Below, in pieces: positions 29,819 to 63,672 of a stretch of 64,000 nt of DNA. Under the pieces are notes generated by a model that was not told the origin of the DNA, ran no database searches, and was given only the letters and a program-made list of their open reading frames with translations. The DNA comes from Ischnura elegans (Eukaryota; Arthropoda; Insecta; Odonata; Coenagrionidae), in contig NC_060254.1 of assembly GCF_921293095.1 (NCBI RefSeq), forward strand, positions 105,176,917 to 105,240,916. The letters run 5' to 3'. The translations under genes were made by a program, and so were the position numbers. How positions within the stretch are numbered: the stretch's first letter is position 1; each line of letters opens with the position of its first letter.

Positions 29819-30313
29819 TCAATGGTCGTAAAACCTCCCATCCCCATCAGGATGGTTCCGCGACGTTCTCAGTTCCAGGGCCTGGCGGACAAGACCTTCC
29901 ATCCTTCGCTCTATGACCCCCACCATCCAGTCAATTTCGTTTATGATAGACGCTATATCCAGAATTATGATGCTATAGCGTTGCATGAATTCTTCAATTG
30001 ATGGACGGTGGAGGTCGGGCCCTGGAAACTCTTCCACCTCTGCCAGCTCCCTGGCAGGGCCCTGTTGTTCAGTGCCGAGGTCTTCTACCAGTCCTCCTTC
30101 TCCCGGAGGAGGAGAGGCGGGCGTTGATGGTCGGCCCGCCTCCAGGGGTGATGGAGCCTTGTCTATCGGCATCTCTGCTGTTGGCTGTAATACCACGTCA
30201 GCCCCTGGAGTCTCCAACTCCTCCGGGATAGGGCCCTCGGCGGCCAATTCCTCCACCTCTTTGCGTCCTAGGCATCTGCCTATTATAGAGAGGAATCCTT
30301 CTTGATCACACAT
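29819..30313 (-). CDS. Unassigned 164-codon ORF in a candidate exon
   Basis: GC-richer than its surroundings. The protein starts MCDQEGFLSIIGRCLGRKE. Its middle (about residues 25-100) is acidic and proline-rich and probably disordered. Its C-terminal third, including IEEFMQRYSIIILDIASIIN and IDWMVGVIERRMEGLVRQA, looks helical. I do not recognise the family. On the minus strand the ORF stop is followed about 40 bases later by GAG|GTAAGT (29778), a perfect splice donor, so the ORF may be part of an exon. Alternatively the true reading frame enters by splicing and the stop lies in a different frame. It could also come from a transposon accessory gene. Plus-strand open frames opposite it are shadows. 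Confidence 0.45.
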   Translation of the reverse strand: MCDQEGFLSIIGRCLGRKEVEELAAEGPIPEELETPGADVVLQPTAEMPIDKAPSPLEAGRPSTPASPPPGEGGLVEDLGTEQQGPARELAEVEEFPGPDLHRPSIEEFMQRYSIIILDIASIINEIDWMVGVIERRMEGLVRQALELRTSRNHPDGDGRFYDH

Positions 30314-32310
30314 AAATTTGGGCCCATTTCAGTCCCACCCCATAGATTTTGCTATCGAAATGGATTAGTTAATGACACTTGTAGACTATGCAGCATAGAG
30401 AAAGATCGTTTAATTTGATTGTATAATTAGAAGAATTGGAGAAGAAGCATTCACCTGGGTTCCTCATGGGGAATCTAAGTGAACAGTTGGGCATTAGGGA
30501 CCCTAAGTGCCTTATATGTGTAACACCTAGTGAGGTTATCAAGGCTCTATTGCACCCTTGCAATGCCAAGGACCCATCTACTTCACTTGGGAATCAATCC
30601 AGTTACGACTCCGTACTAACTTACAAAAATTCCATAGCTCTAAAATACTACTACTAGAGTACTACTTCAGTGTTTTCCTAAAGAGGGGCTAATATGGCTT
30701 ATTGTCAGTGTGAGTTTAAAAAACTATTTGTATATGTTATTCTAGCAAGTCGTTCATTAATATGCCTTCACATAGAAATTATTGGGAAGATGTTTGCAAA
30801 GGAATGTGTTTATCTAGATATCTCATCGACCGGAGAAAAAATTCGCAGCAAACGCCACAAAAAATCATTATATGCATCGATTACATGTTCGATTCATGAT
30901 AAATATGATCTTCATGTCCGGTTTTTGAATTTGAAGGAGTAATACAATGCAACGGAATTGCTGGAGACTTACCGGAAAGGAAATCGATTAAATAATTCAT
31001 GACTACGATAAATTTCCGCCAGGAAAATTGAGGCTGGGAAATAACACCTTCATACGGGGCTCTAGCAATCTCTTCCTTGAGTAAATTTACCCGAAAACCA
31101 AGGAAAATGCGAGTTTCCTGGACATAAAATTATTTTTGAGAGAACCAGATCCTGGTTGCTAAGCAGCTATCTCTGTGGGATGTATTTGAACAAAAAATGG
31201 GAAAAATATATATTCTTAAGGGCGTATTACACGATATAATAAAGTTTAGAAGTTGTTTTGTTACTTACGTATGGTATTACCCATATTGAAAACTGTTTCC
31301 TCAAAAAACTGGCGTTTTTATGCGTATGCACTGTTGCTACGAGTACCTTTTACAAGGATTAAAGGCATATTAACGCACTCCTAGCAACGTGCGGCTGTCG
31401 TCTTCAGAAGGCATTGTTGTGAGGAAAAGCATGCGGCTGTGCATATATATATATTATGATTCATTTCATTGCAAATATGTATACTGTTCTAAGAATCAAT
31501 AAAGTGCCGTATTTTCAAATTAGTACAAGTATTTTCGCTGAAATTATCTACATGGAGTGGCGGTGGCCGGTAATTTTCATGCGGGTATTTTTTTTTCTGC
31601 GTGAATTTTTATTGCCACGGATTAGAATTGATTGTTTCGATCCTTGTTGATTTAGCGGGGTTAATTTATACACATATAAATATCCGTCGTCTAAATATTA
31701 GTGCGCTGCCAGTTTTGGCTGTAATAATTTTCGGATTTCCAATTTGTTTGTTCACGCCCTCTATTTACTTCACCCCTTCTATAGTTCAAGGAGGATATTT
31801 TACGCGGCAGAAAAAAAACATGGAAAATTTACGCGTGTTATTTAAAAAAATTAAATCTGAGCATAGAAATCATGTAAATTCCTCTCGATAAATATGAATA
31901 TAAGCTATTTATTCTGATTAAATATCAAACTGTTTATAACCGAATAAAATCTTAATTGCAGATTACATCGGCGTATTTAAGTGTCCAATAATATCTACCC
32001 TTTTCACACGGATATATTTACGTCGGATTAGTGTTCAATCTTTCAATCAGTGTCGCCGTTTCGTCATTGATATGAGCAATTGTGACCTTCGAATAAATTT
32101 CTTCCGCTGTCTCTTGGACGTTGAATAAAAAATTACATCCAATATTGTCCCACAGAAGAATCTCTCTCTTATTCCAATTGTAGATAGTAATGCCAATGTG
32201 TTGACAAAATCCATCCTGCTACGTTTGGGCAATAGTTAACGTTGTTGGAGCTTCTGAATATTTCTGCTCTTCTAGGTACCAAGGGATTATAGGTATGAAA
32301 TCATAACTAT
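30314..32310. other. No recognised gene
   Basis: Unique AT-rich sequence. Frames at 30694-30942, 31456-31650 and 31601-31891 are hydrophobic or low in information and not recognised. A TATATATA run at 31446-31455 is not followed by a convincing gene. Confidence 0.45.
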
Positions 32311-43222: not shown

Positions 43223-46130
43223 CCCAATTCGCGGAGTCTCCTAAAAATGAAAAATATTTCAGGAGTTTATTCGTAGAGTGTCTTTGAATGTTGGTGCTAT
43301 CGTTTTTTGTAGTATGGCGGGGTGAATAAAAAAGGATTTTCATATTAGTTCAATAGGTATAAATTTCCTAGTACTGCTCTTTCGCTATCGCGTGATCTGG
43401 CCACCAATTTCTACAGGTTCGACTAAGTTGATTTAAGATGCCTTGGGATGAATATTCCTAATGCTCGTATAGAGATTCGTAATGATCCAATGCTTTGATT
43501 TTACACCCCATACTGATACGCCATTTATAACTGTTTTTAATCTGTAAAGTGTCTGAAAATGCAATCAGTGTCGTGTACACTAAGTTCTCAAAAAGGTTTT
43601 TGTTCAGTGAAAACAGGGTCGGATAGAAAAGAACAACTGAATCACCTCTTTGGAAAAGAGAGTTGAAGTGAGAAAGGTGTTTGGTTGGTAGAAGTAGATA
43701 AGCTTCTTCTCCACTTCCCACTGCGCTTTATAAACATGAATGTGCAAACCTACGTGGACCAGTAACCGTATGACTCGCTATAATCTAAACCTATTCTTTT
43801 GCGTGTTTCATGGTATGTACCTTGATTTGATCCCTTGCGTGCCGACCGTGTAAATCTCAGACAAAACGCAAGCCATACGTGCTAATTCAATATTTCTGCC
43901 ACATTTGCTTCGTTCACTTTTTTATCCAAGATAACCCCTCTCCATATTTTTCCTTCGTCGTGTAGTTTACCGAAAAATCGAAACAGTTTGAAAGCTGAAG
44001 TAAACCACGACACCGTTCCCCTTGTACTGACATAACTCGTGAGTTGCGAAAGAATATTCTAATATATTGACAGAATACTTAGTCGGCTAATCTCATGTTT
44101 AAAAGTTATGAGGCGTACGAATTTTTATCCCTTCAGCTTTTGTTGACTACGACCATTATCATTAATGAACACAATACCGATAAGCAAACCACGCTGGCAA
44201 AGACTGAATTACACATTCAGAAATATTCCCATGCAGAAACGCGTTGATTACAATCCATAAACTCATTTAGTTTCAATTTGTCAATTGAAATTTCCCTCTA
44301 GTAAAGGTGACCAAGCTAATACCAATGAACTTGGCTTGTGTTGAAGTTGAAATTCATTGATTATTTCCGTACAGCTTTTTCTTGAAATTTGCAAGAATGT
44401 TAGTGTCGCATCATTGTGGCTTCGATGATCTGTTGCGAAATCTCCTTCACTTTAACCTCTACAAACACAGAACTTCGAATAGGCATGCCTGCTGGCGCCA
44501 AGAATTGAAGCCTAAAATCCGTAATAATTCTAGTCGACAATGGTTTTATTTCGGGGAAAATAAAACAAAAATTTGTATTAAATTAAAATATGTTTAAACC
44601 TACTCAAGATGCCAGTTTTTATGCCTTTACTGAAGAACAAAATTTGCTATATCAAAGATAATTAATTTGAGTCGTTACAAAATGATTAAATCTAATGATG
44701 AAATCATAACGACATGACTTACCTTGTGTAAAATTCGAAGATGAAGACCAAGATCCTTCACGGAAGAAATCAATTTCATCTGTCCTTCATTACGCTATCC
44801 TTGAAGTGGTAACTTTCGCTGGTGACTTATATCTTCAGTTGGTTCGTAATGAACCATTTAGCAATCTCTTTGTATAAAGAAGACGGCATCAGGTTACTCC
44901 ATCCGTTGGCCCAAGTTGAACTCTGCAATCAGGGAAACGAATCTGCGAATGACCAGAAAAATAAATACTACTATGTTATTTTTATAATTCAATCAAGAGC
45001 TACTAATTTCATCGGCGTGTACATTAAAGTATAATGCCATAATTATTCAGGCTTAGTTAGCGACACTACCTTGAGGCCAAGAAAGGTTTGATAGCTACTA
45101 ACTAACGCCATTATAAATGAACAAATGTAAAAGCGAGCATGCAAGTCTTCGATATTTTATCGATATCCGTGGCATAGTGGAAGAAGATGATCACATTGCG
45201 GACTTAATTGAAAAGCATAGATCACATAGAAGACTGAAGATCTTCGAAGCAATTGAAAGCTCTGTTTTGCACTGTCCAGATTTAATTGTTTACGCTCGGC
45301 TAATTAACAAAAAATGGAAAATATTTTTGGGTGTTTTTTAAATGCTTTTTTGCGATTAAACTTAAGGCAGCAATTATGAGATTATCGACCCATTCGCAGC
45401 TGACTTACAACGGACAAATGGATAGAACATTTCCGTTTCATGGAATCTTTACCACCGAAATAATGCGTAGAGAAGGAGTATTAATCTAAGCAATGCATTG
45501 AACCATGATTGAATTGAAACTACTAATGCTCAGTGTGGTTTTCATACTTAAATATTCGATAAATTTGAAACATCTGTGACAAATAATGGATCGTAAAGGA
45601 GAGATTTTTATGCGCTATTGAGAACACATAAATACTTATCCCATATGTACAAATCGCATAGTGGGATTAGCAATGCTCTTATCGCTCGCGAACTCACTAA
45701 ATATCTCCGCTAATCACTGTCGTATGGAGTAAGTTTACATGGTGAGCTACATTAGTAACATGTTAATGCTTGAGGACAATCATGATTAGAATTACTTTCT
45801 CTGTTCACTATCTCATAAAAATTACTTGTGCTCACTTACCTCAGTCAAAACCGCTGCATTTCTTCTAAGTATTTCTGTTGATATGTACGTCGTATAATCG
45901 CTCTCCATCCTCGTTTAGGCATAATGAGACGGTGACTTCAACGAACGAAGGAACGTTTAAAACAGTCCAGGAAATGAATTCAACAAATTGAAAACATTCA
46001 GAAGTGTGACTCTGCCGAAAGGCCGGTTGGTGCTTTCTTCGTAAATAAGGGGAAGGGGAGGTGCTGCTTTGCGGACGACAGTTGAATGCGGACCGTTGGT
46101 GTACTGTTATTCGTAATGCGGTGACGTGTT
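43223..46130. other. No recognised gene
   Basis: Unique AT-rich sequence. Frames at 43458-43721 minus, 44382-44597 plus and 45117-45341 plus have no recognisable domain. The last reads HIADLIEKHRSHRRLKIFEA and may be chance. Confidence 0.4.
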
Positions 46131-46164
46131 TTGCAAACGTACCTAATGACCTTCACACATGCCT

Positions 46165-46179
46165 AGAAAATTCTGGAAC
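46165..46179 (+). promoter_or_regulatory. Perfect heat-shock element
   Basis: AGAAAATTCTGGAAC fits nGAAnnTTCnnGAAn exactly over three units. It lies about 340 bp upstream of the proposed transcription start. Confidence 0.55.
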
Positions 46180-46443
46180 ATAGATCACGTGTGTTTCGAC
46201 CGTTGGCCGCTTGAGAATTTCCGCGCTATTTTTGTATAATAGCTGAATCATACGAACGAATCTTATTGGCCGAACGTTTTATTGATTTTCCGCGCGATTA
46301 ATTTTTTAATTATAATAAAAAATATTACCGTATTTATTGATGTACTTCATTGGATAAAATTTCAAAGGACCCACATCTAAGATATTCAGCGCTTTTTTTC
46401 GGTTTTTTGTTGATTAAATAAATAAATCGGTTCGAAATCATCG

Positions 46444-46514
46444 TGACGTCACAGGCACACGTCACGTGGCTGACGTAGTGTCGGAACGTCCCCTCCCTCC
46501 TTTTCTGGACTTCA
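46444..46514 (+). promoter_or_regulatory. TATA-less promoter: CRE, E-box, initiator
   Basis: TGACGTCA at 46444-46451, CACGTG at 46463-46468, a pyrimidine tract at 46489-46505 (CCCCTCCCTCC then TTTTCT) and TTCAGTT at 46511-46517 that fits the arthropod initiator. An inverted CCAAT (ATTGG) lies near 46265. A pyrimidine tract at the start recalls 5'-TOP genes, including snoRNA host genes. Confidence 0.55.
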
Positions 46515-46544
46515 GTTCGCGGCAAGCTCTGTTGGGATTAAGAG
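46514..46544 (+). ncRNA. Predicted exon 1 of the exon-array locus
   Basis: Runs from the TCAGTT initiator to AAGAG|GTGAGT, a perfect donor at 46545. It has no ATG. Transcript start is approximate. Confidence 0.5.
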
Positions 46545-47760
46545 GTGAGTACCTTAATTACTTGTTTGGTGATTCATTTTCATATTATTTTCAATGCACT
46601 TTCAATGTATTCTTTAAAGTGTAGGATCCTTCGCAAATGCAATTTGTTCATTTCCATTCAGTTATCGAGATTAGAGTGGCATACATGTTGAGTCAAAATA
46701 TTTATAACGCCAACTACCTCCATATTCCAAATTTTATTACCATGTGCCCGAAGTTAATATTAGTGACGGAGTAGTTTTTTTAAAGAACGCTAGTGATAGG
46801 GAAATCTCCTCTCGGATTAAAGCCATACTGTTTTCATTCTTAATCCTGTGACTTTTGAATTGAAATAATTTTTTTGTGAAAATTGGATGTTGGACGTCAT
46901 TGGACGAAATTCCATAATACTAGATTTATTGCCATAACGAATATTCGATCATTCAATTCGTTTGACCTTTGACAAAGCATCAACATTCGTTAGGAATATG
47001 TGTTAATTACATTCTGTTATGATGTGTCGACATTTGAAATGAGTAGGTAGTTTTATCTTTACATTTATCGAGGTTTATAGAACATCAAATATATCGATTT
47101 GATTGCAGTAATTATGATCCGTAATGATCTCTGATAGCTTACTTCTATTACTTCAGCAGGTTAGTTACTATTTTGACGAACGTCAAAATGATGAATTTTA
47201 TCGCGTTGACTGTAGGTATAAGATATTTACATTAGACGTGGAGCAGTGTATTTCATGCCAGCCACGCTGCTTCGTTGTTGATTGTGAGAGAACATTACGT
47301 TTCAAAGTGAAGCTTCTATCCGCGATTTCTTTAGTTGTTAGCCATTAGGATCCCTTATTCATGCTTTTACCATAATTGGTACCTGAATGCCGAGTTATTC
47401 CACGTAAGTAATTAATGTTTCAACGAGGTATTTTAAAAAGTCCTTGTTATTTGAACCTAGGAAATTGCAGTTAACTTATTTCGTTAATACAAGCACCAGC
47501 CTCACCGGAACCACTCCGCAATAATTTATCATATAATTTTGATGATGAGGAAAAGTAATAGAATATTGGAGGTCTTAATTGGATTTGCAGCACTTCACTT
47601 GGCAATTTATTTTTTCAACCTACTTCACCTTTGGAGTCGTTAGTATGATAATTTGTTGTAGCCTTTAATATCAACATAATCTTTAAGTTATGCTCCATGT
47701 AAAGTGTATATTTTTGTCGCGTGAATATTGTCAGCCTTTAACGCGAACTTTTCTTTTCAG
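46545..47760 (+). other. Predicted intron 1
   Basis: Starts GTGAGT and ends ACTTTTCTTTTCAG. No gene seen inside; a 74-codon plus-strand frame (47124-47348) is not recognisable. Confidence 0.45.
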
Positions 47761-47864
47761 GTCCTCCATTGAATAGGGGTGGCGGATCAGTTCCGTGAAA
47801 CGGTTAGGGTTGAATGGGGCATTTGCGAAGAGGTTTCAAGGAAGAGGAAGACTGAAGAAATATG
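47761..47864 (+). ncRNA. Predicted exon 2, ends exactly in ATG
   Basis: A 104-nt segment between a strong acceptor (TTTTCTTTTCAG) and a strong donor (ATG|GTGAGT). All three frames contain stops (TGA, TAG and TGA within the first 40 bases), so it is not an internal coding exon. A short upstream ORF (MGHLRRGFKEEED) ends at a TGA 11 bases before the terminal ATG at 47862-47864. The last 40 bases are purine-rich (GAAGAGGAAGACTGAAGAAA), like the later exons. If the terminal ATG is used, translation would begin in phase 0 of whichever exon is joined next. Confidence 0.55.
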
Positions 47865-48379
47865 GTGAGTCAATATCATTCACTTCATATGATAGGCCTC
47901 TGAATATTCCAATGCATAAATATTTGACTTCTCTATATCTCTGTTAGTAACTAATTAAGAACTAAATCCTGTGCGGTGCGCAAAAATTAACTTCTTCTGC
48001 GATAATTTTTATGATGATATTTCATCATTTCCTATTTCATAATAGTGTTTTGCGCTACGAATTCTCAGCTGTTTACTGGTATAAATATCCGTGACTATGA
48101 AGGCGAAGAGGAATTATAGCTGTTTTAATTTTACGTAGTTCAGGTGAATTTTGCGAGGTTCATTTTAGCATTTAAACATGCCACGGTCTCTCAAATGCTC
48201 TTTCATATCCTTCATTTTTGGTTTCTTAAATACGAAATCAAACGTCTTACTTTTCCGCTCTTACCAACCACTTGTCATTCGAGGATTGACTTCCTTAGAA
48301 CATCAAGATCAGTTTTTCAAGATATGTTCGATTGCAATGGTGTGTATTCCACTTTAAGTATTGACTAGGCTTCTATTCT

Positions 48380-50330
48380 CTCCCACTCTTCTGAGGAATC
48401 CCGCAGTCCTCACTCGAACGATGCATTTCATTTTCATACAGCCGAATAATACCCATCAGTTTCTTCACTGCTGTCATTGCCCATGATTCATTGCCATAGA
48501 GAAGCATACTCGAATTGTATGTTCTGATAAAATATTTCCAAACTTAATTTTCATCATAAAATTTCCTGCTTTTCTAAGCAAATTGATGCTTTATTTTTTC
48601 TGAAGTGTATTTTTGCCCTGGGCTGTCTAACTGATTATTTCTCTTTTGTTTCTACAATTGATTATTCTGCCTCCGAAATATTTAAACTGGTGACCTCTTC
48701 CAATCTTTCTTTCACTAGTTTTATTCTATTCTTAACTTCCTGCCGTTTGCTACACTCTAGTATTTGATGGTGATTTTCAGATGGCATTGGTATTTGCTCT
48801 GCCCAGCTTTACTAGAATGTTTTTCTATTTTACAAATATTTTAATCATGTCTCCTCGTGCATATTCATCCATGTAAACTCCCAATTTTTTCTTGGATGTA
48901 ATCGGTGCCTTTTTAGTTGTAAACTATGAAAATTACGGGAGAAATAACACCGCCTCAGATCACTTGACTTTTCTCCCAATACTTGATTCTTCATAGCTGG
49001 GCCCTATAATGTTGGCCCTACCCCTACTTGGTGTTTTTAAACGAATTGTGGATCATTCATATGCCATTGTTAATTAACTTCATTCAAAATTATAAGCATG
49101 GAACTCCAATCCACACTACTGCTGCGTCAAATTATTCAAGGAAGATAAAGACTAAAGGAATTTGGCGAGAAACTGGTCGACCTCTTCCAATGTTTTTTTC
49201 CCTAGTTTAATGCTATTCTTATGCTACACCTTAATGTATAATATTCGATATTCATTTAAATTGATTTCGTACTAAGTTAGTCGCCCTTCTATACACGTCT
49301 CATTCAGATATTCAATCCATCTCTTCGTTTTTATTAGTCATCAGTCAAAAGTTCTCCGTTTTTGTCACTTACGGTATTCATCATACGCTCATTAATTTGA
49401 AGAGATTCCCATAGCGAGCCTCTAATTTTCCTTGCGCACGATGTTTTCATATTCCTCGACCGCTTTTCTCTGGCCTCCTTGACTTTATGTCAAATATCGT
49501 TCTTTATTCTCCTTTGAAATTCCACGGCTTAAGTATTCTTGTACTTCAGTGGTGCCTCAGTTAGATTCGAGACTTTTTGCGTGATCCATTAAGATGATTA
49601 TCCTTCTCCCAAGAACTTCTTCAGCTGCTTCCAATAGCCCACTGCTCAAGTGTTTCTGACTCTCTTCTTCTGATTTCTCGGTCACATCCGATGCTACTTT
49701 GGTCTACTCTGCGTCTTCAAATTACACTTGATACCGAGTTTTCTTAATTTTTTACTTGCCAAATGTTTTTCACCGCTTTCTTCAGTTTTTAATTTTTTTA
49801 TTTTGGGTGAAATAGCATTGTCGCTGATGAGAGCCTTAAGGTAACTTTTACCGTCAATTTTCTAGTTCTTTAATTGTTTTATTTTCGCTATCGTATCATC
49901 CGTTAGTCGTTTTTTTCCTATAATCGCTTCGCCTGGGCTGTTCTACTGGTTATTTCTTTTTTGTTTCTACACCTGGTTATTCTGCTTCCAGTGTTTGTTT
50001 TACTGGTTTTATGCTATTCTTGACTCCTTGTGTTTTACTACACTGTAATATTTTATGGTGATAATGTTTCTGACTCTCTTCCCCTGATTTCTCGGTCATA
50101 TCCGATGCTATTTTGTTCCCCTCTACCTCCTGAAATTACACTTGATATCGATTTTCTTAATTTTCTGCCTACCAAATACTTTTCTCGGCTTTCTTAAGTT
50201 TTTATTTTATTATTTTTGGTGACATAACATCTCTATTGAGGCATAGTCTCGGTCGTTTTAAGTCTAAGGGTCACTTTTGCCGTCCATTTTATTGTCGATG
50301 AATCGTTTCATCTTCGTAGAATTTCATCAA
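48380..50330 (-). pseudogene. Scrambled LINE remnants inside intron 2
   Basis: On the minus strand, in LINE order: GLLEAAEEVLGRRII at 49640-49592 (end of the endonuclease domain), SLWESLQINERMMNTVSDK and NGELLTDD near 49420-49330 (the linker before RT), and LLYGNESWAMTA at about 48510-48475 (the C-terminal GCE.W block). The RT catalytic core is missing. Two direct-repeat pairs have reshuffled the region: 48640-48780 with 49930-50070, and 49665-49830 with 50065-50225. Many stops. A dead insertion, not part of the host transcript's exons. Confidence 0.65.
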
Positions 50331-51240
50331 CTTAGAATATATCAAGTCCACTATCACTTTCCTCTTTTTCTTCGACTATGATCATTTTTATTTTGTATTC
50401 GAAACCACTAGCTTGTGTTCTTTGTTAGTCTTTCATTTTGGATTTACATCATCCCTGTTTCTCGGCTTACCATCCATCTTAAACATCGTCAGTGATGGCA
50501 TTAAATTCACCGAGAATTATTACATTTTCTTCACCTTTAATCTGCATTATTATTCCCGCTGTATCTTGATTCACTTACTCCACTTCTGCATTTCTTAGCA
50601 ATTTTTTAGGTTTACAAACATTCGGAGATGCTGTAGTTATAGGTTTTGCTTTATATCTTAACCATTACCTACCTTTAATCATACATTTGGTGGCTTTTTA
50701 ATTGTCGCTTTTGATAAGCATTATACTTATTACAGCATTAATATTTAGCGATCCTTCGTGTATTAATCTGTAGCTTGCACTCCACAAGTCTCCCACTCCG
50801 GACAACTGTATTTCGCCGATTCGTAGCTATGACATAAAGGGATAGTTGTGGTGGTCGACCCTAGCCTTCTACGTCGCAGTATTTTAGGCATTTAATTGGC
50901 ATTACGGCGCCTGTAGTGAGTAAAGTATCGATTTTTTTTATAATACTCTCGGATGTTTCGTTAAAATCCTTTCCATCATTTCTTCCTTTAGGGTGTAGCA
51001 AAGTTCAACCTATTAATGCTTTACAGCCCCACCAACAAATTGATAGCGATAATCACTATGCCAACGAAAAAACTTTTCAGGCTATGTCGCTGCGTCAATT
51101 TTCGGGTGGCGCTAACATTTCCCGAAGAATGATGGTCTTCTATTGAAGTGAATCAGATGAAGTAGGAACTGTTATTCATACATATTTATTGTTAGTGAAC
51201 ACAGATAGATAGCCAGGAAATGGTGAAAAAAAAGAAATTC
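50331..51240. other. Intronic, no gene seen
   Basis: AT-rich; short frames at 50413-50598 and 50916-51146 not recognisable. Confidence 0.4.
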
Positions 51241-51249
51241 GGCTATTTA

Positions 51250-52090
51250 AGAATCAGTTAAAAACTTTTATTCATATATTTTTATTGGTATTCGTTTCAG
51301 GGGGGGAATGGGAGTTGGAGGAGTAGGCTGTTGAGTGTTTTTCCGAATTATGGTTTGACAAGTACGAATTATTTTAAGGCGGGTGTCTCTGTTAAGATTG
51401 TTCTTCTCCACTTTTTTTATTTCGATGGCTTCTCTGACGAGTCTTTTTTGAAAGCCTTTCACGTAGGCGACAATTTCTGTTCCTATAAGGTCGATTGCGT
51501 GGCCCAGCGCTGCGTGTTCGGCTGCCGTGGACTTGGTTGACTACCCCAGTTAAATTGCTCTCTCGTGTTCCTCCTGGCGTGTTCTAACTGATCTGCCAAT
51601 GTATTCTTCCCACAGGTTTGACAAGGGATCCGGTAGACTCCTTCGACTTGTAGTGGAGCTCTGTCCTTGACGGGTTTTAAGAGATTTTTTATCTGCACGT
51701 GAGGAGAGAAGATTGTCCTTATGTGATACGTTCTTAGGATATTTCCAAATCTGTCCGTTGTCCTATTTATATGCAGTAGACTTTCTTTTGGTCGCTGATG
51801 TTATTTGTTGAGGAGTTCGCTGTTTCTGCGGTGTCTGCTTTGTCCTCAACATTCTTTTTCATGACCTTAATCAGTGCTCGTGAGATAATTCTTTCGTCGA
51901 ATTCATTTCTCCGCAGAAAGGCTTCTAGTTTCCGCCTTTCTTCGGCAAAGTTGTTTTGGTCGATTATTGTGTTGGAGCGGTGACTCAGGGCGTTTACCAC
52001 TCCATGTATTTGTGCTGTGTGATGAGTATATGTCCATGTTCTACTCTCCTCCTTGTACTATTGAGTTTTCAATTGCATGTAGACACCCAC
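51250..52090 (-). pseudogene. Penelope-like element, decayed 3' half
   Basis: On the minus strand from high to low coordinates: IHGVVNALSHRSNTII, EERRKLEAFLRRNEFDERII and SRALIKVMKK. These form the thumb/linker block after the reverse transcriptase (52050-51850). Then PLQVEGVYRIPCQTCGKN, the GIY-YIG start with GVY, interrupted before the YIGQTGR motif, and LEHARRNTREQFN. Last comes KGFQKRLVREAIEIKKVEKN (51462-51400), the C-terminal block. Frameshifts separate the pieces and the RT core is not recognisable. A different subfamily from the copies at 15.9 and 34.4 kb. Confidence 0.75.
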
Positions 52091-52585
52091 GCACCCAGTC
52101 AGCAAATGGAATGCACTGAGGAAGAGTCTTGGAAGTGTTTTCTTTCGGGCTCCGTGGCGAATAATTTCCTCTCTTTAGATTTTACTTTCTTTAGAAAGTA
52201 TTTGTACCTACCGTCTATGTATAATTACTACATTATACTTTGCGTTGTAGTTATAGATATATACTATATCTCCTCCTCTAGGATCATCAAAACTATTTCA
52301 ACTAAGAATACATCGTACGTAAGAACGCATAGTAAGAATAGAATATTTAATGCGCGTTGTCGATACTAAGCGTAAGAATTTAACTCAATCGAGGATTGAC
52401 AGATATTGGTCGCATGCACACGATGATATAACTATGGCCACTTTCCTTGCTGATTTCCAAAGGATTTTATTTCCACATTTTTTTCAGCATTCAAGCAAAA
52501 TATACCACTTTCGTCTGTCAACTATATATTTACTCTGTATCGAACAAGCCAATTCCTACGAATATTACATCTTTGGGGGTATCCA
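52091..52585. other. Intronic, no gene seen
   Basis: The 137-codon plus-strand frame at 51956-52369 overlaps the Penelope relic and is hydrophobic and low in information; not credible as a gene. Confidence 0.4.
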
Positions 52586-52589
52586 TTAA

Positions 52590-53168
52590 CCCTTTCGACA
52601 CAGTGGTGTTGTTGCCTTAGCATGACTGTTGGACTGAGCCCCAAGGGTCCCTTCCGTCCCCTCTGTACGGACCATTTTGCAGGACATTGGTTAAGAAGGG
52701 TCTCACGGATAATCACACTCCCTCAGCGCCAATCTTTTTCGACTTTTCCGCATTATCTCGGGCTCAAAGTATAGTTGGTCTTCCTCCTTTCCGGGTTGAT
52801 AGCCCTAGTAGCAGAATTGGTTCCGGGTCAACTCATGATTAGTTTATGTGAATTTTCTACATGGATAATTGTTGTTTGCCCGTATGTTGCAGTCTTCGAA
52901 TTCAATTCCTCGGTTTTTTTTCTGTGTATTGTCAACTTTTGAACGGAGCTCTGCCGTCCTAACTAACGGATTTAATGCATTAACAATTTATATGTTGATG
53001 GTCCAGATAAGACTTCGCGTAGCCTCGACCGGCATAAAAGGGCAATGATACGGATATTTACGGCATTCCTTGGCCTGCGTCGGAAAATATATGACGAATA
53101 TTTGCGGCTTTCGTCCTCCGTGTCAAAAACCGTCCGGGCGAATATTTACTTTTTTAGTAGCGAAAGGG
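52590..53168. mobile_element. piggyBac-like MITE
   Basis: TTAA at 52586-52589 then CCCTTTCGACAC; at the right, GTAGCGAAAGGG then TTAA at 53169-53172. 579 bp without transposase. A CCCTCTGTACGGACC motif inside recalls TCCGTACAGAG in the element at 20209-21044. Confidence 0.7.
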
Positions 53169-53172
53169 TTAA

Positions 53173-54878
53173 TTATATGTGGCGTTTAGGAGGGGCGAGA
53201 GGGTCGAGTCGATTCTCACCCAATCTCACGTGCGGGACCAGGGGGTCCTTGCAAGTATCACGTAATTTTTTTCTAAAAAAATGATAAAACATTGCTTTTT
53301 AATAAATCTAACGAATGAAGGTTAGATTATGGTATTTACACTAAACATACGTTTTCAATTCTGTCGCGATAATAACGCATGGATATGGGTCATCGTTTTA
53401 AGTTATTGATTTTTTATTTTACCACTAAGATAACCCGTGAAATATAGAAATAAGGATCGCTTGACTGCCTCCTTTGTTTCCAGTATCAAGTTCAACGATT
53501 TATGTGAAGAGAGAAGGGAATTTTTATGCAAATATTGAATCTGATCATTGATTAAAAATTATCTTTCGTATTAATTTATCCAAAATAAACGTATCCAAAA
53601 TAAACTAGATAAAGTTAAATCGTGATCTCGGTGGAACAAAGCAGCTTTGGATTTGTACAAATTGGAATTCAAAGAATCATGTTTATCTTGTAATTTTATA
53701 CTATATCGTGTGGTCAATAAAATCAATTTTTTTAGTTATATATTTAAATTTTGCTGCCTGCCTCTTTTTTAAAACAAAAATTTGATACGGTGTAATAATT
53801 CCCAAAATGTTTGTTTGCTATGTATTTCTTTGGTACTGCTTATTCTACGAATTCTCTAGTGTTGCTATTATAATACTTAAATTTATATATTTCTGAGTCA
53901 GTTAACATATTTCTACAAATCTTTCACTGTTAAAATGAAGTGGATATAAAGAATTCCACATTAAAGTACAATGATTTCATCTGTTACGAGATATTTTAAT
54001 ATACCTACCCTATTCAATATCACTTTAGAAAGCTCCCAAAGAAATAGACTGTTGTTTAAAAGTCACTGAACAAATATGCGAATTTCCATTGAATTTTTTG
54101 GGTGTCCTTCTTTTTAAATAAACAGCCTTTGTTTTAGCATCCATTTCCACGATTTATAAAGACAGGCGGGTATAATATTTTGAGTCATTCCACCTCAATT
54201 TCAAAAAAGCTTGTCCCGTGTCAGATTTTGATGAATTCATGGTTGATAGTTTATAGTTGAACCTATGGGTCATACTACTATGATATAGACTACCAGTCTA
54301 TGAGTACACGTCCATAGACTAGTATTAAAAGTAATCGGAAAGCTGCACGGGAGAAAAAGTAAACGTTCAAATATTTCCAAAAAATATCATTCAGGAGTTG
54401 ATTTAATTTTAATTTTTGTTATTCTAAGGCAATGATTGAGCCTGCATTCTAAATATTAAATGCTTGGGCCACTTCCGAGATATGGGTTATTTGAAAAAAG
54501 TTGATTTGTTGAACAATGTTTTAAATATTTAGATATAACAATAATAGATAAGTGCACTTTAGCAATATTTTACTCAAAGTGACTACCGAAAGGACTTATA
54601 AGTAAAATAAGCAATAAATAATGTCTCTACGACAATTTGATAGTTGAATTGGTAGATTTATATGATTTAGCGCAATTTTTTTAGGAAAATATTTGATAAC
54701 GTATTAAAACCACATATGAAAAAAAGATCTCACGGTATTTAGTGTGTGGTTGATGAAGACCCATACAGGTATCAAAGTCTGAGTCTCTTAGGGACAAACG
54801 CTTGTTGAATTAAGGTGGATTGCCCCATGTTTAATAATCTAACCCCCGAATTTAACTTAATTTTTTGCTCTCTTCTAG
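53173..54878 (+). other. Last part of predicted intron 2
   Basis: AT-rich, no open frames or recognised repeats; ends with the tract TTTTTTGCTCTCTTCTAG. Confidence 0.45.
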
Positions 54879-55000
54879 GTGCAACCAATCCCCGGACATG
54901 AGGGGAAGAATGAAAGGTGGAGCAGGAAGAATAAAGAGGAGAAGAAGACGATGGCCTCGCGGGACATCCAATACTAATTCCTTTTATGTAATTCGGAGAT
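54879..55000 (+). ncRNA. Predicted purine-rich exon A
   Basis: Acceptor CTCTTCTAG at 54870-54878. The first frame is open for 32 codons (VQPIPGHEGKNERWSRKNKE onward) to TAA at 54975-54977. It is very rich in GAAGA-type purine runs. The right border is unclear. The 3' half of the ORF sequence (GAAGAAGACGATGGCCTCGC) resembles GACAGAAGAGGATGGCATCGC in exon C at 56303, suggesting paralogous exons. Confidence 0.45.
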
Positions 55001-55045
55001 ATTTGACTCGAATTTTAATCCTCTTTTTTGCTCTTTCAATTTCAG

Positions 55046-55096
55046 AATGAATATTGAAGAGTATGAACACCATTCATCGACTTGAGTTGAAGGCTG
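55046..55096 (+). ncRNA. Possible small exon
   Basis: Acceptor CTCTTTCAATTTCAG and donor GCTG|GTAAGA, 51 nt. Closed in frame 0. Weaker than its neighbours. Confidence 0.3.
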
Positions 55097-55504
55097 GTAA
55101 GAGTGCAGTTTTCCTCGGGCGCTGTGCATTGCCGTATATTTTCATCAGGTTTACATCAGGTAATCTAGAACGTGAAATGGTAAAATACGGCCGACCTAGA
55201 CCACACAACAGGAGTTATGAGAGACTCCTGGTGGAAAGTGAATTCACCCTCGATTATCAAAGCACGAGCTCTAGGTATCAACAGTACACGAAAGGTAACG
55301 GCTCGAAGGAGCAAGTTTGAAAAGGTTTCGAAACAGCGCTGAAACAAAGGTACCACAAAGTGCACTTTCAAGTTATTTACTACGAATGAGACCGGTCCCA
55401 GGAGACTAAGAATGCATTCTTAGGCAGGAAATCCACGTGGGTATTTTTGTGTGTAGTTTTTTAAGGTATTTGGGTGGGTTTTGTACTAACAGCATTTATT
55501 GCAG

Positions 55505-55600
55505 GAGTGAAGAATGAAGACGTAGCTGAGGCCCCGAAGATTGAAGACATCGAAGGGGGCCTCGAAGAATGAAGAGGGAAGATAATGTGTGTGTGTATCG
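55505..55600 (+). ncRNA. Predicted purine-rich exon
   Basis: A perfect TACTAAC branch site (55484-55490) and the acceptor TTTATTGCAG precede it. The sequence contains GAAGATTGAAGACATCGAAG and related repeats. Frame 0 closes at once (GAG TGA); another frame is open for about 21 codons (VKNEDVAEAPKIEDIEGGLE). The 3' end is uncertain. Confidence 0.45.
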
Positions 55601-55691
55601 GGAATGAGTGGATATTGATAATCACTCGCCTGAACTGGGTTTACTTTGTTTGTACTTAATTGTAACATGTCTGTAACTCCTTCCCTTCCAG

Positions 55692-55752
55692 CCATGAAGA
55701 TTGAAGACATCAAATTGAGCTCGAAGAACGGCAAGAATACGAGAACGTGTGT
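55692..55752 (+). ncRNA. Predicted purine-rich exon
   Basis: Acceptor CTTCCCTTCCAG. It shares AAGATTGAAGACATC with the exon at 55505. It contains its own ATG (MKIEDIKLSSKNGKNTRTC). The 3' end may be GAAC|GTGTGT near 55752. Confidence 0.4.
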
Positions 55753-55911
55753 TTTTTCATCTATCGTGTGATTTCGTGTGATATTTTTCTGCGTGTGATT
55801 ATTTATATTTGCGTGTGCTGCAAGTATTTTTCCGTTTCGTCGCGTTAGGGTTTGCGTGTTAGTGTTATTTATTTATTTGTTTGTGCATGCACTAATCTTA
55901 CCTCTTCACAG

Positions 55912-56080
55912 ATTCAAGCCATCGCTGGACTTCAAGGAAGGAAGAGTGAGGACTGCACGAAGAAGAGGAGATTGAAGACGCAAGTATTCACGGAAGAAAG
56001 AAGAGAAGCATCGTAGGAAGACGTGTGCGATATTTGCGGCTTAGTTTTGGGCCCTTATGGCCAATGAAAAAAAAATTTGC
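55912..56080 (+). ncRNA. Predicted purine-rich exon B
   Basis: Branch-like CACTAAT, then CTCTTCACAG. Begins ATTCAAGCCATCGCTGGAC, clearly related to exons C and D. The first frame is open for 34 codons to TAG at 56014-56016 and is rich in K, R and E. Donor TTTGC|GTAAGG at 56081, the same as in exon C. Exon 169 nt, following intron 222 nt. Confidence 0.55.
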
Positions 56081-56700
56081 GTAAGGCTAGGCGGTTATTC
56101 CGTGCGTTAGTTTTAGTTATTTTTTGCCGTGGTTTTGCATTACGGATTCCATTGCGTCATGCAGGAATGTGGCTGTGGCTAGGTAGGAAATTTATGATTT
56201 CCTATCGATGCCATTGTCTCCTTCTTGTTTGATGCTTTGGAGCGGTGCAAATCCTCGGAAGGGTTATTTATTTGTGTATGCACTAACCCGCTCTCTCCCT
56301 AGGTCCGCAAGCCATCGCTGGATGTGAAGAGAAGAATGAAGATTCATCGGAAGAATAGAAGACAGAAGAGGATGGCATCGCGGAACCAGAAGAAGGCGAC
56401 ATCTTAGCTTTGGGCCCTTTAGGCCAATGAACATAAATTTGCGTAAGGCTAGGCGTTTTTTCCGTGCGTTAGCTTTAGGTTTTTGTGCCGTGGTTTTGCA
56501 TTACAAATTCCATTGCGTCATGCAGGAATGTGGCTGTGACTAGGTAGGAAATTCATGATTTCCTATCGATGCCATTGTCTCGTTCTTGTGTGATGCTTTG
56601 GAGTGGTGCGAATCCTCGGAAGGGTTATTTATTTGTGTATGCACTAACCCGCTCTCTCCCTAGGTCCGCAAGCCATCGCTTGACATGCTGAGAAAAGGGG
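56040..56700 (+). repeat. Tandem exon-intron unit, about 362-bp period
   Basis: 56045-56325 and 56408-56686 are near-identical, covering the end of one exon, the whole intron and the start of the next exon. Each intron contains GGAAAT and ATTTCC hairpin arms and the CCGTGGTTTTGCATTAC block. Confidence 0.85.
56303..56442 (+). ncRNA. Predicted purine-rich exon C
   Basis: Branch CACTAAC (56281-56287) and acceptor CTCTCTCCCTAG. Begins GTCCGCAAGCCATCGCTGG. The first frame is open for 34 codons (VRKPSLDVKRRMKIHRKNRR onward) to TAG at 56405-56407. Donor TTTGC|GTAAGG at 56443. The preceding intron and the following one (221 nt) are near-identical copies. Confidence 0.6.
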
Positions 56701-56788
56701 AAAGAAGACACTTGGAAGAAGATGGGATGGTGCACCTCACCGAGCCGGCTTCTTGCGGCTCTACATGAGTTGCAGCAGATAAGGAGCG
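56664..56788 (+). ncRNA. Predicted exon D
   Basis: The same branch and acceptor as exon C. Begins GTCCGCAAGCCATCGCTTG. The first frame is open for 34 codons (VRKPSLDMLRKGERRHLEED onward) to TGA at 56766-56768, then donor GAGCG|GTATGA at 56789. Confidence 0.55.
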
Positions 56789-57662
56789 GTATGATCTCAT
56801 AATATTCATTCAAATTTGGTTCATGTTTCCCATATAAATTTTTTAATTAACGAGTTGATTGAGAATGTTCAATATTGCATTCATTAACGGAACTCAATTG
56901 TGCTTACACTGAACTTCTGATTTGCTCATAATGCCATTAAAATTAACAAATGAACTTAATATCCTCCTCAATTTAGTCATTCACTACTCATTGTCAGATT
57001 GAAAATTGTACTTGGTACTTAGTAACTGGAAGTGATATAATTTCATGGATCTATACTAACTTTGAATTGAATTGAAAAGTTATGAAAAAATATTTCCAAT
57101 GGGCAAAATATTTTTTGTGCCAACTTTTTTCTGGATGACTTATAATAACACATCAACGTATTTTCTTTACAAATGTTTTCGAGTCAAAATATCACCTCCC
57201 TTACCTGTCTCCGCAAAATATTTTCAAATTATAAAGCAGTACGAATAACTTTTATTTGTAATTAGTATCTAATTATCTGTTTATTCATAACAAACGTTAT
57301 TTTCCATCATGATTTTTCATTCTGAATCAGAGTTATTTAACTATTTTTTGTCCTGTGAAAGGTTACCCATTTCAAAATCAGTCCTTCATTTTTCCAATTC
57401 AAGGGAGATATAGTTCCATTTAATTGGAATCATTTTATTATAATAGGTATTATTAAGGAATAGAATATTATTTTAATTTCCTCTGCAATACGGGAAATGA
57501 TATTTTTCACTCCAAGTTTTTTAAATCTAATTCAAAGGTGAGCCTATTCACACTGTGACGTCCATGCGCCATAAGAAAATTTATCGATTGAATCGGCCAT
57601 GAGGCCGATTTTCAAGCGTATTGGTTTGTCTCTTTATGAGTGTTCGTTTTTTTCAATTACAG
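56789..57662 (+). other. Predicted intron
   Basis: AT-rich; begins GTATGA and ends TTTTTTTCAATTACAG. No gene seen. Confidence 0.45.
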
Positions 57663-57761
57663 AGTTCGATGGATCGTATTGTGTGAGTTGACTACTCGAG
57701 GCCTCGATGAAAGCACGTGCAAAGAGATCGAAAGAATACAGCTCGTTGCCGCAAGCAGACG
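57663..57761 (+). ncRNA. Predicted 99-nt exon
   Basis: Acceptor TTTTTTTCAATTACAG and donor GACG|GTAAGA, both strong. Frame 0 closes after 7 codons. The next frame is open throughout and would continue into the terminal exon for about 18 more codons. Confidence 0.5.
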
Positions 57762-59119
57762 GTAAGATTTCATTCATTCCTCTTCCAAGTTTTGAGTTCA
57801 GTTCAGAACCAATATTTAGTGATCACATAGGTACACTATGATTTTTACATTCAGGAACCTCGATGATAAAAGTAACGATTGCATGAGAAAATAAATTAAT
57901 ATTTTCACATTTCCTACGCGAAAATATTTAATTCAACCGCACCCAAAATTAAGATTTCTCGCTTATTTTGTAACACTCACAAAACTAAAATCCTGCGCTG
58001 AATCTCAAGGCATTGATTGGTTGGCGACGACGATAGCGTTTGCTTTCATATATTTCGATTTGAAACTTCATTTCTGAGAAATTATATAATTCGAATGAAG
58101 GACAGGTATGGGAATTGTCGTCAATCTATCATAAGTATTTACTTTGCTGTTTAATTTTCTCATTGTAATGCGGAGGTCGAGGTTTCCATATTGGCCTTGC
58201 TTTTGGTAACTCAGCATCCGTCATGCGTGCTCAAGTAATAACTTCCTCAAAGGCCCTATCTGAGTGAAACATGAGATTCCGGTAATATTTTCTACCTTTC
58301 TGAAATTTTCCGTGAATTATATATTCCGAGTATAAGTGACATATTTTAAAAAAAGTCGCAAAAATAATGTATTGATACTCTTTTTTGTTTAATTTTGGGT
58401 ACTTATTTTCCGTTGACGCTTTTTTCCTTGCTGTTAAATATTTATTAAGCCAATGGTGTCAGGAAATTCAGTATATATTTTTCATTTTTTTCGGCTGTTT
58501 TGTTTCTGATGTGATTACTCAGACCTCTGGTTCTTTGCATGATCTTGAGAAATAATTTATATTATTTCTTTCGTATCATTAGACTTAAATATTAAATTAC
58601 ATTCCACAATAAATTATTATAATACATTCTCCTGGATAGCGGTTTTATCCTTAATAAGGATGCCATATTTGTAACTTCTGTTTTCGTATTTTTAAATAAT
58701 TTCATCGTGTTGATTTTTATAATTTCATTATTGTTTTCCATTTCATAAAATAGTACATAAATTTTTGCTATCAATTTTTAGTAATACCCATGAAGTACAA
58801 GTAAGTCGTAAAAAAAGTTATATTAATAACACACTCAGCTCACTGTAATGATTTCCGGGAAAATTTTTAATATTGCCCAATATATCTTTAAAATTTTTAA
58901 TGAATAAAGAAAATACATTGAAATATCGCCGATTTGATAAGCGTCAAAGAATTTGGAATTACACACTCTTGCATTTTTTTTTATTTTAGAAATTTCTACA
59001 CGCTTAAAAATTAATATTTTCAAAACGTCTTTCTCGAAATAATATTTCTGAGCTGAGAGTCAACTTTTTATGTCTCTCGTTTGTTGGATTATGAGAATTT
59101 TTTTGTTATATTACGACAG
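57762..59119 (+). other. Predicted last intron; left border of the duplication
   Basis: AT-rich, no gene. Similarity to the left edge of the window begins at 58906 and continues without a break. Confidence 0.5.
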
Positions 59120-60440
59120 GTCAAGCTTGTGGACAACGACAGCGATTGCTTTTGGAGACAACTGTTCAGGTCCATGAAATTGACACCTGAAGGTTACTGT
59201 GCCGAAAACTAGAGAATTGAGGATTTTATCGTGAAGAAATGAAGAATGAAGATAGGAAGAAAGAAGACACCAAGCCTGAAGATAGTTGTTTTTTTTGCAT
59301 TTTTTGCTGCATATATTGTACAGGGTCTTTGTATATTATTTATTAATGCATGTTTTTTTCCAGCTATAGTTAGGATTTGCGGCAGGAGAGTAGGGATTTT
59401 ATATTGCGTCCTACCGTCGAGTAGAAATAACACAGATTAGGCAGGTCTTCGTGTATCGTGGCCACGATTCCGTATTTAGGCGTTTAATTAATTCATACGT
59501 ATAAAGTAGCATTTAGGTAGGCAGGGCTGTATGAATGGATGAATGTGATTTTATGAATGAGTGATTGGAATGTGATTTTATGAGTGAGTGTGTGCTTGTA
59601 GTAGTAGTGGTACTAATGGTAGTGTTAGTAGCAATACTGACACTAACTCTCCCTTCCTTTCACTAAAAATCCCTCCCCACCCTCCCTCCCCCTCAAAATC
59701 CAAACTGCTCCCTCTACGTGGGGAGGGGGATAAACAGAGGAAAGTCTAATTGTCCAATCAATTGTTGATTTTAATGAATCATTTATGTCATCTCCTGCTT
59801 GAATTACAGCATTGGACTTTCCTCTGGCTAAAGCAGTATGGTATCCTAGTGCAATTTCAAATTCTGTATCTGTGCTTTGTATTTAGGAGGTTTGAAGTGA
59901 TAGAATGTTATCTAATTTGTGGCTCGTGTAATTTTGTTCTGTTTATAATGTTTTCATTTTTTTATTCTTTTGGTTGAAATATGCTTCATGGTGACATTAC
60001 TGATTTATTTTTCATTCACTTTTTTATTATTTTAGCTGATTTTATCCACCAATTTTTGGTACTGTTTTTTTATATTTTCTCATTACTATGAAATTGTGAA
60101 TAAGTATTACTGTGTTCTTATAAGGAATTAAAGTATTATAAAAAATATTTTCTGTATTCATTCATTTTCACTGCTCTTGATAAAGTTGTGTTGTGTAATG
60201 GTATATTCTATAAAATTAAATATTAACTTATATTCCCATTCAAGCATATTCTTTGTAAAATACGTTTTTGTTCCTCCTTTTCATTGGTACTGGGGATCTT
60301 TTGTTAAATGCATGATTCAACTGTCGCTACATGCTAAAATATGGCAACAATTTTTCTATTACCTTTGTGCATATTATTTTTTGTAAGTGTATGTAAAATT
60401 AGCTTGAATTAATAAAAATTTGAAGTACTGCGCTTTTTGA
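59120..60440 (+). ncRNA. Predicted terminal exon with poly(A) signal
   Basis: Acceptor TTATATTACGACAG. The first frame is open for 30 codons (VKLVDNDSDCFWRQLFRSMK onward) to TAG at 59210-59212. A GAAGAATGAAGATAGGAAG purine run follows, then AATAAA at 60411-60416 with a T/G-rich tract after it. The sequence between stop and AATAAA is AT-rich without a conserved frame. Its duplicate is at 213-1530. Confidence 0.5.
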
Positions 60441-62617: not shown

Positions 62618-62624
62618 CATCTCG

Positions 62625-63664: not shown

Positions 63665-63672
63665 CCCTTATG

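What the first reader, a model, noticed from the sequence alone, without database searches (positions are those of the whole stretch)
46165..60440. Array of small GAAGA-rich exons: a candidate undescribed lncRNA or micropeptide locus
A promoter-like region is followed by exon 1 and by an exon 2 closed in all frames. Then come at least six purine-rich segments, each preceded by a good polypyrimidine-AG (several with TACTAAC or CACTAAC branch sites), and some followed by strong donors. A terminal segment carries AATAAA. Exons A, B and C share sequence with each other, so the array grew by exon duplication. No protein family is recognisable. Purine-rich GAAGA runs are classic exonic splicing enhancers, which could explain how so many tiny exons are defined.
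Basis: partly seen in the sequence, partly recalled or inferred. Interest (0 to 1): 0.75.

Follow-up and report, generated by a model that had tools for sequence, protein, structure and literature searches.

The report
Hundreds-copy GAAGA noncoding gene family, damselfly
What looked like one odd gene made of small GAAGA-rich exons is one copy of a family repeated a hundred or more times across the chromosomes of the blue-tailed damselfly, apparently making a spliced RNA without a protein; its control region and its GAAGA motifs stay the same while the rest drifts, which suggests the RNA does something, but nobody has shown yet that it is made.

Summary
The window is Ischnura elegans chr9:105,176,917-105,240,916. 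The single-locus view is wrong. Window 1-5121 is the 3' end of the previous copy (96.3%). The locus belongs to tandem arrays of units of roughly 60 kb: an exon-C1 25-mer has 316 copies and the promoter 22-mer 182 (reversed controls 0).

The family is constrained. TGACGTCA lies exactly 60 nt from TCAGTTCGCGGCAAG in 94 of 100 listed promoters, and 83 of those 100 have a perfect heat-shock element. Within the five exons tested, GAAGA positions diverge a third as much as others (pi 0.028 vs 0.081). None of six exons tested shows codon periodicity. Exons as a whole are not more conserved than introns and several donors decay.

Best reading: a multicopy, spliced, noncoding Pol II gene family whose GAAGA motifs are selected as SR/Tra2-type sites; a stress-induced RNA like SatIII or hsr-omega is plausible but untested. 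The unit also carries a divergent, fast-evolving protein exon (29822-30328, minus), open in 29 of 29 chr9 copies at 97-106 Mb. No transcript evidence was available.

The parts
46166..46178 (+). Three-unit heat-shock element GAAaaTTCtgGAA, 346 nt upstream of the initiator (start to start)
   Evidence: Perfect in 14 of 15 aligned promoter copies; 85 genome-wide matches of HSE+CAT 315-345 nt from TCAGTTCGCGGCAAG, control 0; not found in 17 of the 100 listed CRE-initiator promoters
46102..46230 (+). Conserved upstream promoter blocks (TGACGTGTTTTGC, CACGTG at 46186, CGTTGGCCGCTT, GCGCTATT)
   Evidence: Of 80 25-bp windows with pi under 0.05, 59 start at 46102-46195; column shuffles give 15 on average, 0 of 2000 reach 80; the single lowest window is not unusual (p 0.0975)
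46444..46451 (+). CRE/ATF-type site TGACGTCA, 60 nt before TCAGTTCGCGGCAAG
   Evidence: 15 of 15 aligned copies with spacing 68 start to start; 102 genome-wide, of 100 listed 94 with gap exactly 60, 5 with 59, 1 with 66
46512..46517 (+). Initiator TCAGTT (presumed start of transcription at 46514)
   Evidence: 15 of 15 copies; 22-mer around it 182 copies with up to 2 mismatches, control 0. Start site itself inferred
46514..46544 (+). Exon 1, 31 nt, donor AGAG|GTGAGTACC
   Evidence: Donor invariant over 13 nt in the 13 sequences used; start inferred from the initiator
47761..47864 (+). Exon 2, closed in all frames here (open in one frame in 5 of 13 copies)
   Evidence: Acceptor AG and donor GTGAGT in 13 of 13 copies; frames; no codon periodicity
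54879..54977 (+). Exon A (purine-rich); 3' end uncertain, no clear donor
   Evidence: Acceptor AG kept in the rows that cover it; body more diverse than introns (pi 0.102 vs 0.075)
55046..55096 (+). Exon A2, donor CTG|GTAAGA here
   Evidence: Acceptor AG kept in the rows shown; GTAAGA intact in 2 of 19 dispersed copies; body pi 0.115
55505..55586 (+). Exon B1, after TACTAAC...GCAG; donor weak (GTGTGT)
   Evidence: Branch site and exon core nearly invariant, acceptor lost in L053
55692..55746 (+). Exon B2, shares GAAGATTGAAGACATC with B1; donor weak
   Evidence: acceptor AG lost in L045
55912..56022 (+). Exon C1 (first unit of the exon+intron tandem repeat); donor weak
   Evidence: Acceptor -25..+1 pi 0.000 in window plus 19 copies; 25-mer over it 316 copies genome-wide with up to 2 mismatches
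56303..56399 (+). Exon C2 (second repeat unit); 3' end uncertain, no clear donor
   Evidence: 280-bp repeat 92.9% identical; acceptor CTCCCTAG
56664..56788 (+). Exon C3, donor GCG|GTATGA
   Evidence: Starts with the same GTCCGCAAGCCATCGCT as C2
57663..57761 (+). Exon D, donor ACG|GTAAGA
   Evidence: 93% identical to the chr4 copy with identical donor; following intron 89%
59120..60430 (+). Terminal exon with GAAGA run at its 5' end and AATAAA at 60411; 3' end inferred
   Evidence: First 180 nt 95% identical to chr4 copy against 89% for the intron before it and 91% for the rest; AATTAAA in the chr4 copy
1..1500 (+). Terminal exon and downstream flank of the preceding tandem copy
   Evidence: Window 1-5121 = 58906-64000 at 96.3%; neighbouring units
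29822..30328 (-). Protein-coding exon carried by the same unit, opposite orientation
   Evidence: Open in 29 of 29 chr9 copies at 97-106 Mb, stops in 28 of 31 matches on other chromosomes; gaps of 18, 12 and 9 nt between the window and two neighbouring units, all in frame; dN/dS 0.57-0.66; no significant Pfam or PDB relative

Best explanation
The segment is one copy of a large family of spliced, noncoding Pol II genes in Ischnura elegans, carried in tandem units of roughly 60 kb in many arrays and also as scattered copies. Shown from sequence: the family and its copy counts; a promoter with a CRE-type site at a nearly fixed distance from a TCAGTT initiator, usually with a three-unit heat-shock element; conserved signals of exons 1, 2 and C1; growth of the C exons by duplication; lack of codon periodicity in the exons tested; and conservation focused on the GAAGA motif. 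Inferred: the copies are transcribed from that initiator and spliced; GAAGA is bound by SR/Tra2-type proteins, which at least defines these small exons and perhaps is the RNA's business, namely to bind or hold splicing factors when the HSE and CRE switch the genes on. I put the noncoding-gene-family part at about 0.75 and the stress-induced splicing-factor-binding part at about 0.25.
For: Copies: 316 exon-C1 25-mers and 182 promoter 22-mers, reversed controls 0; of 54 listed promoters on chr1-6, 28 have an exact exon-C1 match 3-45 kb downstream on the same strand, 8 have one 31-45 kb upstream on the same strand (a neighbouring unit), and 0 have one within 45 kb on the other strand. Promoter: blocks of pi 0.02-0.09 beside a spacer of 0.205, order test 0 of 2000 shuffles, CRE-initiator gap exactly 60 in 94 of 100, HSE in 83 of those 100, with degenerate HSE positions varying while the core is kept in 14 of 15. 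Motif: GAAGA positions pi 0.028-0.036 against 0.069-0.085 elsewhere in the five exons, also lower than other non-CpG purines (0.070-0.096), in 10 of 10 defining copies tried; 20-26 GAAGA per 344-422 nt of exon against 0-1 per 922-952 nt of intron in 20 of 20 copies. Noncoding: no periodicity in 6 of 6 exons tested; none of the 10 window ORFs tested (of 16 of at least 110 aa) reaches a Pfam cut-off.
Against: No RNA data of any kind could be consulted. Exons overall are not more conserved than introns (pi 0.071 vs 0.075; exons A and A2 are more diverse) and five acceptors pooled are not significantly more conserved than random windows (p 0.115). Several donors are weak, the A2 donor is intact in only 2 of 19 dispersed copies, the poly(A) signal is not kept in the one other chromosome checked, and the heat-shock element is missing in whole arrays (0 of 8 in chr6 3.2-3.6 Mb, 1 of 6 in chr1 11.5-11.9 Mb). 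Copies inside one array are recent duplicates and not independent. Rfam has no match reaching a gathering score and the intron tested shows no conserved fold.
Confidence: 0.55

Rival explanations
1. Passive segmental duplication: the arrays are amplified for another reason (for instance the divergent protein gene), and the GAAGA gene is a hitchhiking, mostly dead noncoding transcript or pseudogene.
For: Exon and intron diversity are equal overall; the unit also carries a protein exon kept open in 29 of 29 chr9 copies at 97-106 Mb; promoter matches are fewer than exon matches (182 against 316); donors decay.
Against: Promoter blocks, a nearly fixed CRE-initiator gap and motif-specific GAAGA conservation across chromosomes are not expected of dead sequence; the protein exon has stops in 28 of 31 matches on other chromosomes, so it does not obviously drive those arrays.
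Confidence: 0.2
2. The conserved 46.1-46.5 kb region is a bidirectional promoter kept for the divergent protein gene, and the plus-strand RNA is a by-product or a regulator of it in cis.
For: On chr6 3.2-3.64 Mb each of 8 promoters has the protein exon 27-31 kb upstream in divergent orientation (by subtraction of the places), the same layout as here.
Against: It does not explain the conserved plus-strand donor after exon 1, the exon 2 splice sites or the GAAGA conservation. The protein gene's start was not located, and those chr6 matches contain stops.
Confidence: 0.12
3. A selfish mobile element of about 18 kb with its own Pol II gene, spread by transposition and then amplified in tandem.
For: Scattered single copies on several chromosomes among the 100 places listed; recurring edges of homology near 43963 and 62198.
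Against: No inverted repeats between the two edges; homology runs past the left edge in other copies; mid-unit sequence is shared too; none of the 10 ORFs tested reaches a Pfam cut-off, though some fragments in the unit resemble transposon proteins from memory.
Confidence: 0.08
4. A translated gene or micropeptide family that has decayed in the window copy.
For: Exon 2 has one open frame in 5 of 13 copies (L067, L068, L069, L075, L077), with a 3-nt length difference between two of them.
Against: No codon periodicity in 6 of 6 exons tested; exon 2 closed in 8 of 13 copies; with GT donors the longest ATG frame that starts before the terminal exon has 41 codons.
Confidence: 0.05

Closest known systems
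Human satellite III lncRNAs (HSF1-driven, nuclear stress bodies)
   Same: Many repeated copies, HSE, purine-rich short motif (GGAAU) in one strand, binding of SR proteins such as SRSF1 in the known case (PMC9032817, passages seen)
   Different: SatIII is a simple pericentromeric satellite without exons (recalled in part); here each copy is a multi-exon gene with its own promoter, units are tens of kb, and expression and binding are untested
Drosophila hsr-omega (omega speckles)
   Same: Insect noncoding gene with heat-shock logic and a role in holding RNA-processing factors (PMC9032817 passages; PMC3102753 search listing with abstract start)
   Different: [quoted passage not shown] few exons and a tandem-repeat tail are recalled. 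No sequence relationship was tested
GAAGAA-type exonic splicing enhancers (Tra2/SRSF1 targets)
   Same: Same motif, concentrated in exons and nearly absent from introns
   Different: Enhancers are best known in coding exons; here they sit in a noncoding family and are the most conserved exonic feature. The motif's binding proteins are recalled; the papers were seen only in the search listing
Tandem arrays of insect genes with transcriptional interference (ant odorant receptors, PMC12393541)
   Same: Arrays of related genes made by tandem duplication (title and abstract start seen)
   Different: Different protein, one separate divergent gene per unit here, no expression data

Membership tests
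HSF1-dependent satellite lncRNA (SatIII type) | Heat-shock elements in the repeats | tested here: met
   Perfect HSE in 14 of 15 aligned promoters, 85 genome-wide next to the initiator; absent from some arrays
HSF1-dependent satellite lncRNA (SatIII type) | Short tandem satellite as the transcribed unit | tested here: not met
   Unit is a multi-exon gene; tandem repeat finder lists only 8 short arrays in the window
HSF1-dependent satellite lncRNA (SatIII type) | Induction by heat and recruitment of SRSF1 | not testable with these tools
   No RNA or protein data
hsr-omega | Single-copy gene | tested here: not met
   182 promoter and 316 exon-C1 matches
Protein-coding or micropeptide gene | Codon periodicity and conserved frame | tested here: not met
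   Permutation p 0.13-0.88 in 6 exons of 11 predicted; C1 stop shared by 17 of 29 copies
snoRNA/miRNA/tRNA host gene | Known small RNA in introns | tested here: not met
   No Rfam match reaching a gathering score; the five weak ones, best E 0.055, lie outside the gene; ARAGORN 0 (bacterial settings); I expect insect snoRNAs to be poorly covered
Terminal-inverted-repeat DNA transposon | Inverted repeats at the ends of the shared unit | tested here: not met
   Only 9-12-nt chance matches between the edges; true ends uncertain
Spliced lncRNA gene | Transcribed and spliced RNA | not testable with these tools
   Only promoter and splice-signal conservation

The most novel reading that the evidence does not exclude
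A genome-wide, many-copy stress RNA system: arrays on most chromosomes of a damselfly fire together through HSE and CRE promoters and make a spliced RNA whose selected GAAGA clusters capture SR/Tra2 proteins, a gene-structured counterpart of satellite III and hsr-omega with dosage set by copy number.
Probability: 0.2. Interest if true: 0.85.

Novelty: new variant of a known kind. Interest (0 to 1): 0.62.

Why it matters
If the family is transcribed, it is a noncoding gene with a hundred or more promoter-bearing copies in an early-branching winged insect, kept at the promoter and at one splicing-type motif while much of the rest drifts. That gives many natural replicates for asking which parts of a lncRNA selection sees, and a direct test whether insects other than flies use a repeated stress RNA to hold splicing factors. 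It also warns that a single-locus view misses such families.

Tried and rejected
Exon 2 as an ancestral coding exon: open in one frame in 5 of 13 copies, rejected because diversity shows no codon phase. Micropeptide over B1-B2-C1: a 59-codon frame rested on exon ends set one base off; with the ends given in 'parts' it is gone. Conserved RNA structure in the 55105-55478 intron: rejected, z -0.50 and -0.34, 0 of 71 pairs compensatory. Small-RNA host: nothing. Transposon with inverted repeats: none. Finding further exons of the divergent protein gene by codon statistics between neighbouring chr9 units: uninformative, too little divergence; only listed minus-strand ORFs. A scan of GAAGAAGAAGAAGAAGAA in the genome shows little excess over the reversed control (428 vs 393), so the motif run itself is not the family's mark. 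Papers: searches list nothing on odonate lncRNA arrays; PMC9975421, PMC10781644 and PMC9032817 were seen as passages only, the others as search listings.

Caveats on my own numbers. In some searches some exon ends were set a base or two off the positions given in 'parts'; the ORF search was redone with the right ends, the diversity figures were not (one or two columns per exon). Sequences used: 19 dispersed copies; (exons A-C1), those 19 plus the window, those 20 less the defining copy; nine aligned chr9 copies were left out of all of these, and L010 and L019 were not aligned. Exon 2 figures: 12 sequences, one further chr9 copy left out; promoter pi figures: 13, two further chr9 copies left out. 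GAAGA was tested in exons A, A2, B1, B2 and C1 only. One search used only listed places (54 promoters on chr1-6: the exact ones and those one-mismatch ones that the list reached; 93 exact exons).

Full report
WHERE IT IS. The window lies at contig C9:105,176,917-105,240,916 of a 1,722,721,009-base genome in 110 contigs. Contig C19 carries matches up to 94 Mb, and in that table only X is left at such a size, so C19 is taken as X (inference).

The sequence shows the promoter-like stretch, a short exon 1 ending at 46544, exon 2 at 47761-47864, a set of GA-rich segments after pyrimidine tracts, exon D to 57761 and a terminal segment from 59120. GAAGA occurs 32 times in 54850-56810 on the plus strand against 4.4 +/- 2.0 in shuffles. 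Donors are good for exons 1, 2, A2 and D and moderate for C3; the rest are weak or missing. The C-type exons are a tandem exon+intron repeat of about 360 bp.

IT IS A FAMILY. Window 1-5121 repeats 58906-64000 at 96.3%. The 140 kb fetched around the window hold further units, mostly 93-99% identical in aligned pieces, with insertions between them. Probe searches scored 40 of 447, 40 of 365 and 40 of 542 candidates for the exon block, the promoter and the terminal block; these lists are lower bounds by design. Pattern counts are whole: 316 for the exon-C1 25-mer and 182 for the promoter 22-mer (up to two mismatches), reversed controls 0 and 0. The 100 listed CRE-initiator promoters fall in 29 clusters on nine chromosomes; chr6 3.21-3.64 Mb has eight at 60-63 kb spacing. 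Of 93 exact exon copies listed on chr1-6, 89 lie in the distal quarters of their chromosomes (49 of 53 clusters). A second stretch 442,857-442,858 bases upstream is identical to the window in the probes: a very recent duplication or an assembly artefact, so chr9 counts may be inflated.

THE PROMOTER IS CONSTRAINED. Fifteen promoter copies were aligned: three from the chr9 array, twelve from chr1, 4, 5, 6, 8 and two other chr9 sites. TGACGTCA and TCAGTT are present in 15 of 15 with a fixed distance of 68 between their starts, although indels occur elsewhere; the heat-shock element GAAnnTTCnnGAA is perfect in 14 of 15, the exception having one core change. Diversity is 0.02-0.09 in five chosen blocks, 0.205 in a spacer and 0.16 at the start of intron 1; the clustering of conserved columns was met by 0 of 2000 shuffles, though the single best window is not unusual (p 0.0975). 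Genome-wide, 102 CRE-initiator promoters exist; of 100 listed, 94 have a gap of exactly 60, 5 of 59, 1 of 66. In 85 places the heat-shock element (with CAT after it) sits 315-345 nt from the initiator; 83 of the 100 listed CRE-initiator promoters have it, and the misses are grouped (all 8 of chr6 3.2-3.6 Mb, 5 of 6 of chr1 11.5-11.9 Mb). Copies within an array are not independent.

THE EXONS. Over 19 dispersed copies, exons and introns have about the same overall diversity (0.071 and 0.075); A (0.102) and A2 (0.115) exceed the introns, B1 (0.059), B2 (0.023) and C1 (0.051) lie below. Pooled acceptors are not significantly conserved (p 0.115), although the C1 acceptor region is (pi 0.000), and the A2 donor is intact in 2 of 19. 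Inside the exons, however, positions within GAAGA have pi 0.028 against 0.081 for the rest and 0.091 for other non-CpG purines. Because the motif could be favoured by how it is defined, I repeated this with ten of the 20 copies as definition, each left out of its own count: 0.028-0.036 against 0.069-0.085, no rotation of the motif map as low in any. Exons have 20-26 GAAGA, introns 0 or 1, in 20 of 20 copies. None of six exons tested shows a codon phase. So what is kept in these exons is a nucleotide motif of the splicing-enhancer type (its binding by SR/Tra2 proteins is recalled knowledge).

THE UNIT CARRIES A PROTEIN EXON. Window 29822-30328 (minus) encodes 169 residues. Of 63 matches in the genome, 29 of 29 on chr9 at 97-106 Mb are open; chr9 14.96 Mb matches in two open pieces, chr9 25.4 Mb has stops; on chr1, 6 and 11 identity is 42-87% and 28 of 31 matches contain at least one stop, which may mean decay, exon ends or frame changes. 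Between the window and two neighbouring units the gaps are in frame, dN/dS is 0.57-0.66, and the window exon differs from its neighbours about three to seven times more than its flanks do, perhaps from exchange between two subfamilies. It has no significant Pfam or PDB relative. On chr6 3.2-3.64 Mb the same divergent layout is seen. The two genes may share a promoter; I did not find the protein gene's start.

HOW IT MOST LIKELY WORKS. Shown: family, promoter conservation, GAAGA conservation, no sign of coding in the exons tested. Inferred: Pol II starts at the initiator under CRE- and often HSF-type control; splicing joins GA-rich exons defined by GAAGA enhancers; the RNA, made from many loci, may bind SR/Tra2 proteins. 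SatIII and hsr-omega work in that general way (PMC9032817, passages), but membership fails on unit structure for SatIII and on copy number for hsr-omega. The rivals are passive amplification with the protein gene, a bidirectional promoter, and a selfish element.

LIMITS. No RNA data, no other odonate genome and no annotation of this genome could be consulted.

Noticed in passing
window 29822-30328 (minus) and copies on chr9, 6, 1, 11: A fast-evolving protein exon without significant known relatives, open in 29 of 29 chr9 copies at 97-106 Mb but with stops in 28 of 31 matches on other chromosomes; divergent to the noncoding gene in the window and in the chr6 3.2-3.64 Mb array.
   Followed up: partly
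chr9 104.78 Mb and 105.22 Mb: Two stretches 442.86 kb apart are identical in the six probes used: a very recent large duplication or an assembly error.
   Followed up: no
chr1-chr6, exon-C1 matches: Exact copies lie mostly in the distal quarters of the chromosomes (89 of 93), avoiding the middle.
   Followed up: partly
window 34914-34591 (-), 16450-16172 (-), 51270-52060 (-): Fragments that read like Penelope-type GIY-YIG endonuclease (recalled resemblance, no search made): transposon debris in the unit.
   Followed up: no
window 15332-15417: A near-perfect 70-bp palindrome that scores weakly as mir-132 on both strands, probably a small inverted-repeat element.
   Followed up: no
window 55105-55478: The intron between A2 and B1 has several nearly invariant stretches across 24 copies, without conserved fold.
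   Followed up: partly
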